A DNA stretch of 64,000 nucleotides from positions 62,001 to 126,000 of the forward strand of contig NZ_SOAZ01000003.1 in assembly GCF_004364155.1 (NCBI RefSeq), given 5' to 3'. The translations under genes and the position numbers were made by a program. This document shows positions 2,504 through 31,113 of the stretch, piece by piece. Every line of letters begins with the position of its first letter. The first letter of the stretch is position 1. This DNA comes from Fonticella tunisiensis (GTDB lineage Bacteria > Bacillota > Clostridia > Clostridiales > Caloramatoraceae). The notes below the pieces were generated by a model. It made no database searches. It was not told the DNA's origin and saw nothing but the letters and a program-made list of their open reading frames with translations.

Positions 2504-3643
2504 TTATTGATTTGGTATGATATGAACTTCTATATCTCTAATTAATTTAAGTAACTTTGTAATAGTTGACCCTCTAAGAATTGTCTGCCATTTTGTCCTT
2601 GTACTATGACCAATTATTATTTGAGTAATATATTTTTCTGCAGCAAACCTTGCGAGTTCTTTTGGAATACTCTTCCCTGTTAAAGTTACAACTTCGGCCC
2701 CAAGCTGCTTTGCCAATCTAAAATGACTTTCAAGCATTTTCTTATCCTTTTCTGTCATCTTAGGTGCAAATATCTTTGTGCAATTAACATATACAACAGT
2801 CCAATCACATTTAAATCTTCTTGCTATTGTTGCACCTCTTCGAATTAATTTTTTAGAAGTTGGACTGGAGCTTATGCATACCATTACTCTTTCTATAACA
2901 TGCCAGTTTTCTTTAATTCCATGTTCCTTTCTATATTCCTCAAGCTCTTCATCAACTTCTTCTGCTGTTTTTCTTAGAGCTAATTCCCTCAAAGCATTAA
3001 GATTGCCTTTTCTAAAGAAGTTTTTCAAGGCTCTTCCAATATTTTCAGGTTTATATATGTATCCACCCTTCAGCCTATTGATGAGAGCATTCGGAGCAAT
3101 GTCTATAACCACAACTTCATCAGCGTTTTCAACTATTCTATCGGGGATTGTTTCCCTCACAGTAACTCCCGTTATTTGTCTTACGACATCATTATAACTT
3201 TCCAAATGCTGTATATTTAGTGTTGATATTACATTAATTCCATGGTTTAAAATCTCTTCAACATCCTCATATCTTTTTTTATTTTTGGAGCCTGGAACGT
3301 TAGTATGTGCAAGCTCATCTACTAAAACTGTTGTTGGCCTTCTTGCTATAATAGCCTCGGTATCCATTTCTTCCATGATAACTCCATTGTACTCTATCTT
3401 TTTTCTTGGGATAATTTCAAGCTCTCCAATTTGAGCTTCAGTTTCTTTTCTCTGATGAGACTCTAAATATCCAATAACAATATCCTCGCCTTTTTTAAGT
3501 CTATTATTAGCTTCGTTAAGCATTGAATATGTCTTACCTACACCTGGAGCATAGCCTAAATATATTTTCAAATGCCCTCTTTGTTCTTCTTTTAGTTTCT
3601 TTAACGCTTCTTTAGGAGTTATTCTCTTAAATTCTTCAACCAT
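2504..3643 (-). CDS. kdpD: Short KdpD: N-terminal KdpD domain plus USP domain, no histidine kinase
   Basis: KdpD is normally a sensor kinase of about 900 residues. This one has 379 and ends after the cytoplasmic input region. Seen: the KdpD N-terminal ATP-binding domain with a Walker A-like GYAPGVGKT at 30-38 and VDELAHTN near 108-115, then a universal-stress-type domain from about 250 to 375 with a GHSTRTKW nucleotide-binding stretch. There are no membrane segments, no HisKA/HATPase domain and no KdpE gene nearby. It converges on kdpC. Stand-alone short KdpDs are known in some clostridia and cyanobacteria. In other Firmicutes the KdpD USP domain binds c-di-AMP, so a K+/c-di-AMP sensing role here is inference. 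Confidence 0.9.
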   Translation of the reverse strand: MVEEFKRITPKEALKKLKEEQRGHLKIYLGYAPGVGKTYSMLNEANNRLKKGEDIVIGYLESHQRKETEAQIGELEIIPRKKIEYNGVIMEEMDTEAIIARRPTTVLVDELAHTNVPGSKNKKRYEDVEEILNHGINVISTLNIQHLESYNDVVRQITGVTVRETIPDRIVENADEVVVIDIAPNALINRLKGGYIYKPENIGRALKNFFRKGNLNALRELALRKTAEEVDEELEEYRKEHGIKENWHVIERVMVCISSSPTSKKLIRRGATIARRFKCDWTVVYVNCTKIFAPKMTEKDKKMLESHFRLAKQLGAEVVTLTGKSIPKELARFAAEKYITQIIIGHSTRTKWQTILRGSTITKLLKLIRDIEVHIIPNQ

Positions 3644-3726
3644 AATTATCAGTCCCTTTAATTTATAATGTTATTTCATGTATTCTTTTAATAATACAAC
3701 TTTAAATATTTTTATACTATAAAAGT

Positions 3727-3930
3727 GGCAGAAATAAAAAATATATAGAATGAACACTTTAACGAGCAGGTAGAAGAAGTTCTTAGTGAAAGGGTGCTGA
3801 AAAACCTTACAACTATTAGTTGTGTTTGAGCTTATGCAAGTTTAACGAATGTTGTTGACTTGTCAGCCACACCGAGCTTTAGAACTTCTTACACAGCGCA
3901 GCAGTGAATGGAATATATTTTTTATCGCAG
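3727..3930. repeat. Foldback intergenic repeat, copy 1
   Basis: About 204 bp that aligns along its whole length with 11645-11845. Both begin near GCAG and an ATAAAAAATATAT stretch, carry AAGTTCTT about 50 bases in and an inverted AGAACTTCTT near the other end, and finish with ATATTTTTTATCGCAG. The ends are inverted copies of each other, and an inner inverted pair (around 3805-3865) could form a long hairpin. No open frame spans it. It looks like a non-autonomous mobile repeat or a structured RNA. Confidence 0.75.
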
Positions 3931-4140
3931 CAGGTGTCTATAAATCCTTGAATTTTATATATAACTATTATTATATTATAAGCTTTTGAAAATATTATTA
4001 AAAGTGTATGAAGCTAAGGCTAGTAAATTTCCATTAAACTATATATGCACAACAGAAAAAAACGACTTATACTACATTAGTTTGAAAAAGAAAATTTAAA
4101 GCTAATACAAATTCCAATCATTAAACTACCTTTACAAATT

Positions 4141-4260
4141 CTTCTATATCATATATTGAATCCATAATGAATTATTTTTACAAAATACCGAACCATAGAA
4201 TTCTCTAAGTTCTTTTACTAAAGACATTGCAATTATACTATCACTTACGTTTGCAGGATT
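4141..4260 (-). pseudogene. Transposase fragment (DDE family)
   Basis: The minus strand reads NPANVSDSIIAMSLVKEL and then, in a shifted frame, the MDSIYDIEE-type stretch also found at 15007-15249 and 16015-16080. This resembles the part of DDE transposases around the second catalytic aspartate (…MDxxYD…). No start, no long frame. The rest of the 3644-4390 gap holds the foldback repeat (3727-3930), a small palindrome at 4270-4288 and AT-rich sequence. Confidence 0.6.
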
Positions 4261-4390
4261 AATTATTATACTCAACTTTCAGTTGAGTGAAAACTTTTTA
4301 CCTTATTACAGGGTATATATATATGAAAGTAGTCATTAATCACGGTTTTTGGCTAGAATATGCTTATAGCTTCGCTAAGGAGGTGTAGAT

Positions 4391-4933
4391 GTGGAAAAAA
4401 ACATATTATTAAAAATACAGCAGGGCGATAAAAACGCCTTTGCAAAACTTTATGATGAATATTCTGAATCTGCATTAAGGACCGCAATGGCAATTACTAA
4501 GGATAAGATGTATGCTGCAGATGCTGTTCAGGAAACCTTTATAAGAGTTTATAAAAATATAGGTGAGTTTGACATAAATAGAACATTTGAACCATGGTTT
4601 TATAGGATCCTGATCAATGAATGCAATAGAATATTAAGCAGAAATTCTAAAACAATTCCTATGGATGACTTTATCGAAAGTGGACTCCCTGGTTGTGATG
4701 AGGATAGGTATAGGTTTGAGGAATATGAAAGTCTATATAAGGCTATAGAGAAACTTGATGATATCAATAGAATCCCCATAGTGCTTAAATATCTTAAGGG
4801 TTTTAGTGAAGGTGAGATAGCACAAATTCTAGAAATAAATTTGAATACGGTAAAATCAAGACTCTTTAAGGGAAGACAAAAACTTAGAAGGTATATTGAA
4901 CTATTAGAAGGAGGTAGTGAACACCATGGATGA
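4391..4933 (+). CDS. ECF-type RNA polymerase sigma factor
   Basis: 180-residue sigma-70 family protein that directs RNA polymerase to a small regulon. Region 2 covers about residues 12-75 (FAKLYDEYSES…AVQETFIRVY) and region 4 about 120-172 (FSEGEIAQILEINLNTVKSRLFKGRQKL, a helix-turn-helix). It starts with GTG at 4391 behind a perfect AAGGAGGTG site. Its 3' end overlaps the start of the anti-sigma gene by 8 bases, the usual arrangement for translational coupling. The signal and target genes cannot be read from the sequence. Confidence 0.95.
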   Translation: MEKNILLKIQQGDKNAFAKLYDEYSESALRTAMAITKDKMYAADAVQETFIRVYKNIGEFDINRTFEPWFYRILINECNRILSRNSKTIPMDDFIESGLPGCDEDRYRFEEYESLYKAIEKLDDINRIPIVLKYLKGFSEGEIAQILEINLNTVKSRLFKGRQKLRRYIELLEGGSEHHG

Positions 4934-5655
4934 TATGAAGGATAAAAAAATTGAAGAAGTCCTGCTTAAGGGAACAGATGAGGCTGTCGAGCTTAAGGAT
5001 ATGGTTTGGAAGAACATAGAGAATAGGTTGAATCTAGAAGAAAGAAAGGTGATTCCTATAAAAAGAAGAAGCTTTTTAAAGTATGGAATCGTAGCCGCTG
5101 TCCTTGTTATTATACTACTTGCAAACACTCGATATGGAAGTGCTGCAGCTGATAAGATAAGAAAACTTTTTGTGCCTAACAAAACAATAGAACAAAACCT
5201 TGAGGGTACAGGGGAGAAAACCAAGGTTGACCTTGAAATAAGCCCAATGAAATATATTATATATTTAGACAAGGAAATGTATAAAATGGATAACATTGAT
5301 GGTAAGGATGTAATAACTCCTAAAAATGTAGCACAAAACCTTCCTGAGGTATCCATGACAATAGAGCAGGTGCTTGATTAAGAAGCCTGAAGATTTATCA
5401 GCTGAAATAGAAAAAGCTCTTAAAAAAGATTTTAAAATCGTAAATAATAGGGGAAAGGTTACAGAACCTACTAATGCAATACTCATTCAGGCCCAAGGAG
5501 GAAATAAATGGAATGATAAGGTGATTAAGTATTACCTCATAGACAATACAAAGGGAGGTACCTTTGTTATCAAGCAGCAGTACTTTGTGGAAGCAAGTGA
5601 AGGACATGGAGCAAGGTTTGATAATATTGTTAAGGAGTTTAAGATAGTGAATTAA
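4926..5655 (+). pseudogene. Membrane anti-sigma factor, split by a frameshift
   Basis: Partner of the upstream sigma factor. Starting at ATG 4926 (the GGAGGT at 4908-4914 is too close to the GTG at 4917), the first frame gives a basic cytoplasmic segment, one membrane helix at about residues 45-64 and the start of an outside domain, then stops at 5379-5381. The next frame (+1) continues without a gap in sense: VLD in the first frame runs into KKPEDLSAEIEKAL in the second, up to 5655. Dropping one T of GATTAAG near 5376-5380 joins both into a protein of about 242 residues of the DUF4367/RsgI-like type. It could be a real mutation, a sequencing error or, less likely, programmed shifting. Confidence 0.75.
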
Positions 5656-5762
5656 TAAATGGAAGCTCTGAGGGGGTTCTGCTGTTGCATCAAAGAGAAA
5701 CTTACAGATTGACAAGATAAGATTTAAAAAGTTAATAATGAAAAAGGCAGTTGATGTATAAG

Positions 5763-5798
5763 AAAGGCACTGTGCTAAACAAGTCACAGTGCCTTTTT
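5763..5798. terminator. Bidirectional terminator between convergent operons
   Basis: 12-bp perfect stem (5763-5774 with 5785-5796), loop of 10, T run on the plus strand and A run on the left side. It lies between the anti-sigma gene and the end of the minus-strand ABC operon. Confidence 0.85.
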
Positions 5799-5857
5799 CG
5801 TATCTACAAGTATTATGCAGCCTCCAATTGCAAGCGTACGTTCTTGACCATATCACA

Positions 5858-6679
5858 CTAGTGCGTCCCAAGTATTCCAAGGCTTCTGCACTTTTTCTCA
5901 ACCTTGATAAAAATAAAGCTTCCAACAAAGCATAATATAAACATTGCACATATAATTATTATAAGTTCCTGCCAAAGTGGAAATAATGGCACCTGATTTA
6001 TAAGAATTGCTCTGCTGCTGTCATATACATAGGTTAATGGAATGGCAAGTGCAACGAATAAAAATCCCTTGGACATAACCTTTACAGGAAAGAAACTGCC
6101 AGATAATGCTGAAAGCACTGAGTTTACAAGGTCTATTATGGGGTTCGCATCCTTTGCAACAAGCACAAGGGCTGCAACAGCCATTCCAATGCCTATCATG
6201 CCTATGATACCTGGAATTAAAAATCCTACTGCTTGAAAAAGGTCTGAAGACAATTTAAACCCAAAGGCAATACGGCATACGATAAAGGTTAATATTATCT
6301 CAAAGGTAGTTGCACAGAAATAGAACACCGTTTTACTAAGCAGCATAACTATTTTATTGACTGGAGCACACCAATTTGATTCAAGCACTCCCTGGCGCAT
6401 CTCCTCCTTGAGGGAAAAGCCAGTGGTCCAGAAAACTGTGCTCACATAGCTTGTTATCATATATCCTATTATGAGAAATCCCATATAATCCGAGTTTCCT
6501 GTATATCTTTCAAAACCAACAACGCTGCCTCCACTGCTGAAGCTCTTTCCCATAAAATAAAATGGCGTAAGCCAAATTATGGGGTCAAATAGAGTCATAA
6601 TGAAGTTTACAGGATATCTAAAGTAAATTTTCATGCTTATTGAAAATCTTGCTCTGAAAACATTCCATATTTTTTTCAT
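5858..6679 (-). CDS. ABC-2 type export permease (second of pair)
   Basis: 273-residue integral membrane protein with about six hydrophobic segments and the LEEMRQGVLESNWCAP stretch typical of ABC-2 permeases of the drug/polysaccharide export group. It lies 9 bases after the sister permease and shares its fold and the LESNW motif, so the two probably form a heterodimer with the ATPase at 7522. The substrate is unknown. Confidence 0.9.
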   Translation of the reverse strand: MKKIWNVFRARFSISMKIYFRYPVNFIMTLFDPIIWLTPFYFMGKSFSSGGSVVGFERYTGNSDYMGFLIIGYMITSYVSTVFWTTGFSLKEEMRQGVLESNWCAPVNKIVMLLSKTVFYFCATTFEIILTFIVCRIAFGFKLSSDLFQAVGFLIPGIIGMIGIGMAVAALVLVAKDANPIIDLVNSVLSALSGSFFPVKVMSKGFLFVALAIPLTYVYDSSRAILINQVPLFPLWQELIIIICAMFILCFVGSFIFIKVEKKCRSLGILGTH

Positions 6680-27867: not shown

Positions 27868-28226
27868 CTAAGATATATAACTCTTCATAAATTCTTTTAT
27901 AATCCCTCTATGCTCTTCCTTCTCGCCAATAAGTGCAAAGCCCCTGCTGCTTAGTTTCGACATCCTTGATTGCGTTATGTTCCCCAGGGTTTTTGATATA
28001 TCTGTACATCTAAAGTTACATAAACTCCTCATAAGCACAACTAAAAGTGCCTTTGCTTTCATAACTCTCCTTGAGTTTTTCATTCTTATGTCTACTTTAG
28101 ACACTTTAAATTTCTCAGCTATAAACTCAATTATCCTATCCGATGAAACATATCTAACGAGTATCGTCCTTCCGCTTCTATATTCTGTTCCTTCATTTTG
28201 AAATTCAAATTCCTCTTTGAACTTCT
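27868..28226 (-). pseudogene. C-terminal fragment of a REP-associated tyrosine transposase (RAYT)
   Basis: The minus strand encodes RIIEFIAEKFKVSKVDI, then SRRVMKAKALLVVLMRSL and CTDISKTLGNITQSRMSKL, the DnaA-like C-terminal helix-turn-helix end of Firmicute RAYTs. The N-terminal catalytic part (HUH motif and Tyr) is absent; the frame breaks upstream near 28290. The 28227-28595 stretch beyond it is non-coding and should hold the promoter of the secreted-protein gene. Confidence 0.65.
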
Positions 28227-28595: not shown

Positions 28596-28985
28596 GTGAA
28601 AATAATTGGATTAATTAAAAGAATAGGAGTAGCTTCACTTCTAGTGCTGTTCCTAGTAAGTATACCTGCTTATGCACAAACAAGCCGTGTTGAATTCAAG
28701 AGAGGTTCAGTTCTTATGTGGACAAAAGACATAATTGAATGGACTTACAACGGAAGTACTATTTCATCTAGCTATGCATATCAACAAAAAGGATATATCT
28801 TTCCAAATATAGCTAGAGTAAACGGTATTTTTAGAATCTCAACTACGTCAACAATGCATAGATACAGAGGGGACAAAACTATAGGTGCAGGAATAGTAAC
28901 TCCATGGGGAGACGTGACTGTTTATGAAACTGACTATTCAGACTACTATCGAGTATATGGTTCAGGCTCTTATCTTTGGGAATAA
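28596..28985 (+). CDS. Small secreted protein next to an ABC transporter
   Basis: 129 residues. Clear signal peptide: basic KRIG, hydrophobic core VASLLVLFLVSIPA, cleavage after AYA (about residue 27). The mature part of about 102 residues is rich in Tyr, Ser, Thr and Trp, probably all beta, without cysteine, and ends in SGSYLWE. I do not recognise a family. The gene order, a secreted small protein followed by an ABC ATPase, a permease and a tiny membrane peptide, recalls bacteriocin/immunity cassettes (such as the lactococcin 972 type), but sequence similarity is not evident. A GAGAGGTGG ribosome site precedes it. Confidence 0.75.
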   Translation: MKIIGLIKRIGVASLLVLFLVSIPAYAQTSRVEFKRGSVLMWTKDIIEWTYNGSTISSSYAYQQKGYIFPNIARVNGIFRISTTSTMHRYRGDKTIGAGIVTPWGDVTVYETDYSDYYRVYGSGSYLWE

Positions 28986-29220
28986 GATTTTGAATACTTA
29001 TTATTAAGGGATTAATGGGAAGGCGTGGTATAAATGCCTTCTCATGTTTTATGAAATACTATAAGATTTCCTGTTTGCTTAATAAATTTAACATTATTTT
29101 GAAAAAGTGTTGAATAAGTGAAACTATTATTTTATTATAAATCTAAACGACCAAGTAAATTACTATAATGAATTGCTTTTTAATATAATATTTTAGTACT
29201 TGAAAGGAAAAGATAGCTTT

Positions 29221-29886
29221 ATGATAACTATAACAAATTTAAGTAAAAATTATGGCAAAAACAAGGTGCTTCAGGATGTAAATATAAATATTCCAGAGAA
29301 TAAAATCTCTTTCCTTATGGGGGAGAATGGTGCAGGAAAAACTACATTTATCAAATGTTTGGTTCAGCTTGAAAATTACAAAGGACAAATTTTGTTTGAT
29401 GAAAAGGAATTCCAAGATGTTAGGGATGAAGTTTTAGCAATCTATGACGATGCTCCTTTATATACTAATCTTTCAGGAATTGAGAATCTTGATTTAATGA
29501 ACTTCAGAAAATTAAAGAAAAAAGAATGTTATAACATTGCACTAAAATATTTGAGTGGGGATATATTAAAACGAAAGGTAAGTACATATTCTTATGGCCA
29601 GAGAAAAAAGCTTTTTATTGCTCTTGTTGAGATATGTTCGCCTAAATATTTAATAATGGATGAAATCTCAAATGGTTTAGATTATGAGTCTATGAAAGGG
29701 TTAAAGAAAAGCCTCAAAGAATGGTCAAAAAATATGACTATAATACTAACAGGACATCAATTTGACTTTTATAATAATTTGATTGATGAACTTTATATTG
29801 TTAAAGATTCCCAAATAACATATTTTGAAAATTTGGATTTAAATAAGGAAAATCTGGGGGATATATATGATGAAAATATTATTTAA
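29221..29886 (+). CDS. ABC transporter ATPase of the secreted-protein cassette
   Basis: About 222 residues. Walker A GENGAGKTTF near 36, signature TYSYGQRKKLF (variant), Walker B YLIMDEISNGLD, H-loop GHQFDFY. Compact, as in bacteriocin-immunity or export ATPases of the ABC-2 group. ATG 29221 is preferred to the TTG at 29200. It overlaps the permease gene by about 20 bases, so the two are translated together. Confidence 0.9.
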   Translation: MITITNLSKNYGKNKVLQDVNINIPENKISFLMGENGAGKTTFIKCLVQLENYKGQILFDEKEFQDVRDEVLAIYDDAPLYTNLSGIENLDLMNFRKLKKKECYNIALKYLSGDILKRKVSTYSYGQRKKLFIALVEICSPKYLIMDEISNGLDYESMKGLKKSLKEWSKNMTIILTGHQFDFYNNLIDELYIVKDSQITYFENLDLNKENLGDIYDENII

Positions 29887-30823
29887 TGTTATAAATGAAA
29901 TAAAATATCAATTTTATTCAAAAATCCTAATTGTTATTACAGCTTTTATTACTCTAATAATGGTTTTTAATATATATTCAAATATGAATAATATGAAAAA
30001 TTCATATGCTCAATATCAGCGCAGTAAGGATTTTTATATTCAAAGCGGACAAGATGTAAAAGCAGCCTTGTCAAGTGAAGCTAAGGTTGAAGAAACTGAA
30101 AATCCTAATGGAACTACTGTAGTTCAAGTTGATAATGTTTTAAAGTACGACTACGATAATGTATCTAGAATGATTTCTGTAAATAATCCCAAGTATTTAA
30201 TTTGGCAGATATTAGAATTCTCCACTTTTCTAATATTTCCCTTTATATTTGGTATATATGGTGTTTTAATTGCAAACTATGATTTGAAGTTTAAAACGAT
30301 AAAGGTTAAGGCAGTTAGAGAAGAATGGTATAAAGTAACATTAGCTAAAATACTTTCAATGATTTTAGGTATCCTTATAACTTTAATTATAAGTTATTCT
30401 ATATGTATCTTTGCTGGCAGCTTAATGTATAAGAATGCTATAAAAAATATACCTATTTCAGAGTTCAATATGACTATTTTTTCAAATTCTAAAAATATTT
30501 TCAGTGCAGCTACATTAAGCGGTTTTCTTGCTTTATTATTCGCTTTAATAGGATTCACCCTTACAACAATATTTAAGAGCAGTGTAATTCCAATAATAAT
30601 AATTGTTGTTTATAACATGTTTATTCCGTCTTTAGGTAAGTATGACTTAAAAAATATTATTAGCGTTATAGGACATAAATATTATTCTTTTAAAGGTACA
30701 TTCAAGTTGCTTAAGCCAATTGAAGTTTCCGTAGGAGCTTCTGTATTTTACATTATATTTATTACATTTGGATTCGTGGCAACATCTTTAATTTTAGCCA
30801 AAAAGCAAAGTAAATTTATATAA
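29867..30823 (+). CDS. ABC-2-like permease of the secreted-protein cassette
   Basis: 318 residues: one N-terminal membrane helix, a soluble outside loop of about 100 residues (about 40-140), then five more helices. The pattern fits ABC-2 permeases of the immunity/NosY-like group. No substrate can be read. It is followed after 17 bases by a tiny membrane-peptide gene. Confidence 0.85.
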   Translation: MMKILFNVINEIKYQFYSKILIVITAFITLIMVFNIYSNMNNMKNSYAQYQRSKDFYIQSGQDVKAALSSEAKVEETENPNGTTVVQVDNVLKYDYDNVSRMISVNNPKYLIWQILEFSTFLIFPFIFGIYGVLIANYDLKFKTIKVKAVREEWYKVTLAKILSMILGILITLIISYSICIFAGSLMYKNAIKNIPISEFNMTIFSNSKNIFSAATLSGFLALLFALIGFTLTTIFKSSVIPIIIIVVYNMFIPSLGKYDLKNIISVIGHKYYSFKGTFKLLKPIEVSVGASVFYIIFITFGFVATSLILAKKQSKFI

Positions 30824-30840
30824 AAGGAGATACCAAACGA

Positions 30841-30984
30841 ATGAAAAAATTAATTATAAGCATTATAATCATTTTATTAATAATTATAGGGGTAATTATT
30901 ATTTTAGGAGTTTTAGGCAATTTAGGATTTAATAATAGAAGTATTGGATTCTTAAGTGAAGAAGTGATTATAGGGACTAGGTAG
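30841..30984 (+). CDS. 47-residue membrane peptide
   Basis: ATG 30841 is preceded by AAAGGAGAT at a sensible distance. The frame gives one long hydrophobic helix (about residues 4-26, nearly all Ile and Leu) and a short polar tail NNRSIGFLSEEV…GTR. It follows the permease in the same orientation. Could be an immunity or regulatory peptide, or the stub of a longer gene cut by the REP-like GGACGGTTAA immediately downstream. Confidence 0.55.
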   Translation: MKKLIISIIIILLIIIGVIIILGVLGNLGFNNRSIGFLSEEVIIGTR

Positions 30985-31076: not shown

Positions 31077-31113
31077 AAAAGTCGGTCAGGCAAACAAGGT
31101 CTGATCGACTTTT
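31077..31113 (+). terminator. Terminator of the secreted-protein cassette
   Basis: 13-bp stem (31077-31089 with 31101-31113, one G-T pair) with a T run. The 30985-31556 gap holds this hairpin, REP-like GGGACGATTAATGG at 31251, the partial foldback repeat at 31340-31425 and a second terminator. Confidence 0.8.

What the first reader, a model, noticed from the sequence alone, without database searches (positions are those of the whole stretch)
28596..30984. Unrecognised secreted protein with its own ABC transporter and a 47-residue membrane peptide
A signal-peptide protein with a Tyr/Ser/Trp-rich, cysteine-free mature part is followed by an ABC ATPase, an ABC-2 permease (overlapping) and a tiny, well-led membrane peptide, ending in a terminator. 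This gene order resembles bacteriocin/immunity cassettes, yet the secreted protein matches no family I know.
Basis: partly seen in the sequence, partly recalled or inferred. Interest (0 to 1): 0.65.

Follow-up and report, generated by a model that had tools for sequence, protein, structure and literature searches.

The report
Unnamed secreted bacteriocin-like protein with ABC
A three-gene cassette, a small secreted cationic protein followed by the two genes of an ABC transporter, recurs in unrelated Gram-positive bacteria and on small Lactococcus plasmids, which makes it a likely new, unnamed family of protein antibiotic with its own self-protection pump, not yet tested.

Summary
Window 28596-28985 encodes a Sec-type secreted protein (102-aa mature part, no Cys, pI 8.9), followed by an ABC ATPase (29221-29886) and an overlapping ABC-2 permease (29867-30823). 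The secreted protein matches no Pfam, NCBIfam or PDB entry and no PHROG convincingly. Its relatives, also unnamed, are on dairy Lactococcus plasmids, in 12 of 44 Bacillus-type genomes and in one Paenibacillaceae-like genome. All 15 intact copies, in at least five unrelated settings, are followed directly by homologues of the same ATPase and permease. One 6-kb Lactococcus plasmid carries little besides replication, mobilisation and this cassette. On two other plasmids the secreted gene is broken or replaced while the ABC pair stays intact, as expected of a toxin with kept immunity. A hairpin separates the secreted gene from the ABC genes. Best reading: a new sequence family of Sec-secreted bacteriocin with ABC self-immunity, organised like lactococcin 972 but without detectable sequence relation to it. 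No activity has been shown, and strong purifying selection leaves room for a non-toxic role. The 47-aa membrane peptide is an open frame with a ribosome site, but no relative has it, so it is not part of the core.

The parts
28596..28985 (+). Secreted protein, 129 aa; signal peptide about residues 1-27, mature cationic Cys-free part 28-129 (core motif W[ST]K...Y.G...S..Q..G..FPN....G ... TPWG[DN])
29015..29045 (+). Terminator-like hairpin between secreted gene and ATPase gene (12 pairs, 7-nt loop, GTTTTATG tail); a hairpin lies at this place in all 14 cassettes checked, though the sequences differ
29221..29886 (+). ABC ATPase, 221 aa; 38-48% identical to the ATPases of homologous cassettes; best curated model is TIGR03740 (lantibiotic protection), well below its cut-off
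29867..30823 (+). ABC-2 type permease, 318 aa, overlaps the ATPase gene by 20 nt; extracytoplasmic loop of about 75 aa after the first membrane span (read from sequence)
30841..30984 (+). 47-aa hydrophobic peptide ORF with ribosome site; accessory at most, absent from all other cassettes examined
31077..31113 (+). Hairpin followed by a short T run, likely terminator of the unit

Best explanation
The cassette is a mobile bacteriocin/self-immunity unit of an undescribed sequence family. The first gene's product is exported by the general Sec pathway, its signal (and, in Bacillus and Paenibacillaceae, a further pro-region) is removed, and a roughly 100-residue, cationic, aromatic-rich, Cys-free protein is released that harms related Gram-positive cells at the envelope. 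The ATPase and permease form an ABC-2 transporter of the producer that removes the protein from its own membrane or wall precursors, giving immunity. The hairpin after the secreted gene lets it be transcribed more strongly than the immunity genes. Shown here: gene content, order, homology, linkage, plasmid location, loss of the first gene with the ABC pair kept, hairpins, purifying selection. Inferred: Sec export and cleavage, antibacterial action, target, immunity role of the transporter, role of the hairpin.
For: All 15 intact homologues are directly followed by the same ATPase and permease families in at least five unrelated settings: the window, a Lactococcus plasmid, two different Bacillus chromosomal sites, and a Paenibacillaceae-like site. 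The three proteins of the window and of plasmid pLLUC7005E match at 39%, 39% and 25% identity. That 6,078-bp plasmid carries little but replication, mobilisation and this cassette, comparable to the 11-kb lactococcin 972 plasmid (PMC4055356). On pLLF72C the secreted gene has lost its signal region, and on pUCCL630E it is gone next to an IS6-type remnant, while ATPase and permease remain intact. Distribution is patchy: only the window's own genome among 391 of its class, and 12 of 80 genomes of the Bacillus-type family, all in one genus. The window cassette has atypically low GC. The best curated match of the ATPase is the lantibiotic-protection model. All members lack Cys and are cationic, pI 8.9-10.3. 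Hairpins occur between the secreted and ABC genes. dN/dS is well below 1 in all three genes, so the unit is kept functional.
Against: No activity data exist for any member. The secreted core is under very strong purifying selection within Bacillus (dN/dS about 0.02-0.13), not the diversification often seen in bacteriocins. In two Bacillus clades the cassette sits at recurring chromosomal sites, as a physiological operon might. No homology to any bacteriocin was detected. The lantibiotic-protection match is far below the curated cut-off (122 against 310 bits).
Confidence: 0.7

Rival explanations
1. The secreted protein is not a toxin but an extracellular partner of an ABC resistance module, for example a decoy or sensor that binds an antimicrobial made by others while the transporter removes it.
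For: ABC-2 pairs of this kind often give resistance to foreign peptides (general knowledge); the ATPase's best model is a lantibiotic-protection one; strong conservation of the secreted core fits a fixed ligand.
Against: The ABC pair is kept without an intact secreted gene on two plasmids, so the secreted part seems dispensable for what the pair does; no regulator or sensor kinase belongs to the cassette.
Confidence: 0.13
2. The cassette has a physiological envelope role: a secreted wall or matrix protein whose assembly or turnover uses the ABC transporter.
For: Recurring chromosomal sites in two Bacillus clades and low dN/dS.
Against: Patchy distribution (12 of 44 genomes of the genus; only the window's own genome among 391 of its class), presence on small mobilisable plasmids, atypical GC in the window.
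Confidence: 0.12
3. The ABC pair is the exporter of the secreted protein rather than its immunity system.
For: Constant linkage and order (15 of 15).
Against: Every intact secreted protein has its own Sec-type signal peptide, and the ATPase and permease lack the peptidase domain or fused permease-ATPase build of dedicated bacteriocin exporters.
Confidence: 0.05

Closest known systems
Lactococcin 972 and the lactococcin 972 family (PF09683; streptococcin B locus scbABC)
   Same: Sec-type secreted, Cys-free, unmodified small protein followed by two genes for a putative ABC immunity transporter; found on a small Lactococcus plasmid (PMC4055356, PMC11796350).
   Different: No sequence relation: no PF09683 hit in 14 members, profile comparison of mature parts no better than shuffled columns. 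The permease is a 318-aa ABC-2 type protein that matches no NCBIfam model of a bacteriocin-associated membrane protein.
Lantibiotic self-protection ABC transporters (LanFEG type, TIGR03740 for the ATPase)
   Same: ATPase of the same broad type (best NCBIfam hit, 122 bits), proposed self-protection role.
   Different: Far below the curated cut-off (309.75); one permease instead of two; no lantibiotic precursor, modification enzymes or Cys in the secreted protein.

Membership tests
Lactococcin 972 family (PF09683) | Sequence match to the family model in the mature part | tested here: not met
   No PF09683 hit in any of 14 members; hhalign of mature cores scores 9.5 against 7.0-13.4 for shuffled columns
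Lactococcin 972 family (PF09683) | Sec-type signal peptide, no modification genes | tested here: met
   and gene neighbourhoods; signal judged from sequence
Lactococcin 972 family (PF09683) | Antibacterial action through lipid II and septum formation | not testable with these tools
   needs purified protein
Lantibiotic protection ABC transporter (TIGR03740) | Score above the curated cut-off | tested here: not met
   122.4 bits against 309.75
Bacteriocin/immunity cassette (functional kind) | Secreted-protein gene genetically linked to a dedicated transporter in independent settings | tested here: met
   15 of 15 intact homologues
Bacteriocin/immunity cassette (functional kind) | Inhibits relatives; transporter protects the producer | not testable with these tools
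   no bench data

The most novel reading that the evidence does not exclude
A new family of Sec-secreted protein antibiotics with its own fold and target, shared by the window's organism, Bacillus, Paenibacillaceae and Lactococcus plasmids, with a matching new type of two-gene ABC immunity.
Probability: 0.45. Interest if true: 0.68.

Novelty: new variant of a known kind. Interest (0 to 1): 0.52.

Why it matters
Model-based annotation has nothing that names this protein: no Pfam or NCBIfam model hits it. If it is an antibacterial protein, common Bacillus and dairy Lactococcus carry an unrecognised antibiotic together with a ready immunity marker, and 12 of 44 sampled species of one Bacillus-type genus have the cassette, so it can be tested at once in laboratory strains.

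Tried and rejected
The single genome-contig hit (Flavobacterium) lies inside a transglutaminase-type protein and is chance. Viral contigs gave nothing, and phages gave only a chance hit. The weak hits at E 0.004-0.01 are fragments of other frames. Relation to lactococcin 972 was tested by family model and profile comparison and rejected. The fragment standing in place of the secreted gene on pUCCL630E resembles only a long Enterococcus protein, so it is not taken as another cassette toxin. Weak permease hits in four other genomes belong to a different ABC pair next to a GDSL-lipase-like gene. Promoter-like sites occur at chance level. Paper searches found no description of this family; the library is partial.

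Full report
Observation. The four frames described are present at the stated coordinates. The secreted gene (28596-28985) starts with GTG after a good ribosome site and encodes a signal peptide ending AYA|QTS and a 102-residue mature part with no Cys, pI 8.9, Tyr 10.8%, Ser 10.8%. The ATPase most likely starts at 29221. The permease start overlaps it by 20 nt. The 47-aa frame has an AAGGAG site and is followed by a strong hairpin with a short T run. The cassette is on the + strand, has genes on the - strand downstream of it, and has 27.8% GC, about the lowest 1% of 2.4-kb stretches of the window.

Families. The secreted protein has no hit at E 1 in Pfam or NCBIfam, none at E 10 among PDB sequences, and only a weak match in its signal peptide in PHROGs. 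The ATPase is an ordinary ABC domain whose best curated match is the lantibiotic-protection model TIGR03740 at 122 bits, far below its cut-off. The permease is only weakly like ABC2_membrane_2.

Relatives. A protein search of plasmids found two dairy Lactococcus plasmids (E 3e-15). pLLUC7005E (6,078 bp) carries a replication gene, mobilisation genes, one further hypothetical gene, the secreted gene, the ATPase and the permease, the last three in the same order as in the window. Pairwise identities to the window are 39%, 39% and 25%. Profile searches of whole genomes then found one genome in a phylum sample (E 4.5e-19), 12 of 80 genomes of that genome's family, all in one genus of 44 sampled, and one genome of another family in a sample of 399 of that class. 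Only the window's own genome had a real match among 391 genomes of its class.

Linkage. In all 15 intact loci (window, Lactococcus, 12 Bacillus-type, one Paenibacillaceae-like) the secreted gene is followed directly by a homologous ATPase and permease. The surroundings differ: a plasmid, two kinds of Bacillus site, between a panD-like gene and a chemotaxis gene, and the window's own site. On pLLF72C the secreted frame has lost its signal peptide and start, and on pUCCL630E it is replaced next to an IS6-type transposase remnant, while ATPase and permease remain intact. A further genome keeps the permease (E 8e-72) with only the end of the ATPase. Loss of the first gene with retention of the pair is what one expects if the pair protects against the first gene's product.

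Core protein. Over 14 members the conserved part is about 101 residues with invariant W, Y, Q, FP and TPWG motifs. All are cationic and Cys-free. Bacillus and Paenibacillaceae members carry an extra pro-region between signal and core. dN/dS between Bacillus species is 0.02-0.13 in the core and below 0.2 for the ATPase and permease, so all three genes are kept functional; the core is unusually conserved for a bacteriocin, which is the main point against the toxin reading.

Hairpin. Between the secreted gene and the ATPase gene lies a hairpin in each of the 14 loci examined, with different sequences in different lineages. In six of the seven folded regions the gap folds more stably than shuffled sequence (z -2.5 to -5.4; the seventh z -1.4). 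In the window it looks like a terminator; in Bacillus it lacks a good T run. The simplest meaning, an inference, is that the first gene is expressed more strongly than the transporter.

The 47-aa peptide. It has no database match and no convincing second copy in its own genome, and no other cassette examined has such a gene after the permease. It is therefore not part of the conserved unit.

Comparison with known systems. The nearest by design is lactococcin 972: Sec-type, unmodified, with structural gene plus two putative ABC immunity genes on an 11-kb Lactococcus plasmid (PMC4055356; streptococcin B, PMC11796350). Sequence membership was tested and failed: no model hit in any member and a profile comparison no better than shuffled controls. 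The claim made is therefore 'works like', not 'is', a lactococcin 972 system. A common fold is not excluded, because no reliable model could be made.

Verdict. A real, conserved, horizontally spread cassette of an unnamed secreted protein and a dedicated ABC-2 transporter, most likely a bacteriocin with immunity (0.7). Activity, target and fold remain to be shown.

Noticed in passing
L019 (pUCCL630E) 4660-5350: Fragment of a different secreted protein and an IS6-type transposase remnant stand where the secreted gene of the cassette should be; similar transposase sequence may have driven the exchange.
   Followed up: partly
L052 (genome G587) 3105-6496: Permease of the cassette family with only the C-terminal piece of the ATPase, flanked by two pieces of a metallopeptidase-like gene that look like a duplication around the insertion.
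   Followed up: no
window 27868-28104 (-): 78-aa frame upstream of the cassette that may be the end of a DNA-binding protein, perhaps a transposase remnant; no Pfam match.
   Followed up: partly
L020, L033-L043, gap between secreted and ATPase genes: Bacillus hairpins have a loop of about 20 nt with a shared ACTATTT..AAAT stretch in both clades, unlike plain terminators; may be a regulatory site.
   Followed up: no
L053-L056: A different conserved ABC pair next to a GDSL-lipase-like gene in four genomes of the phylum, weakly related to this permease.
   Followed up: no
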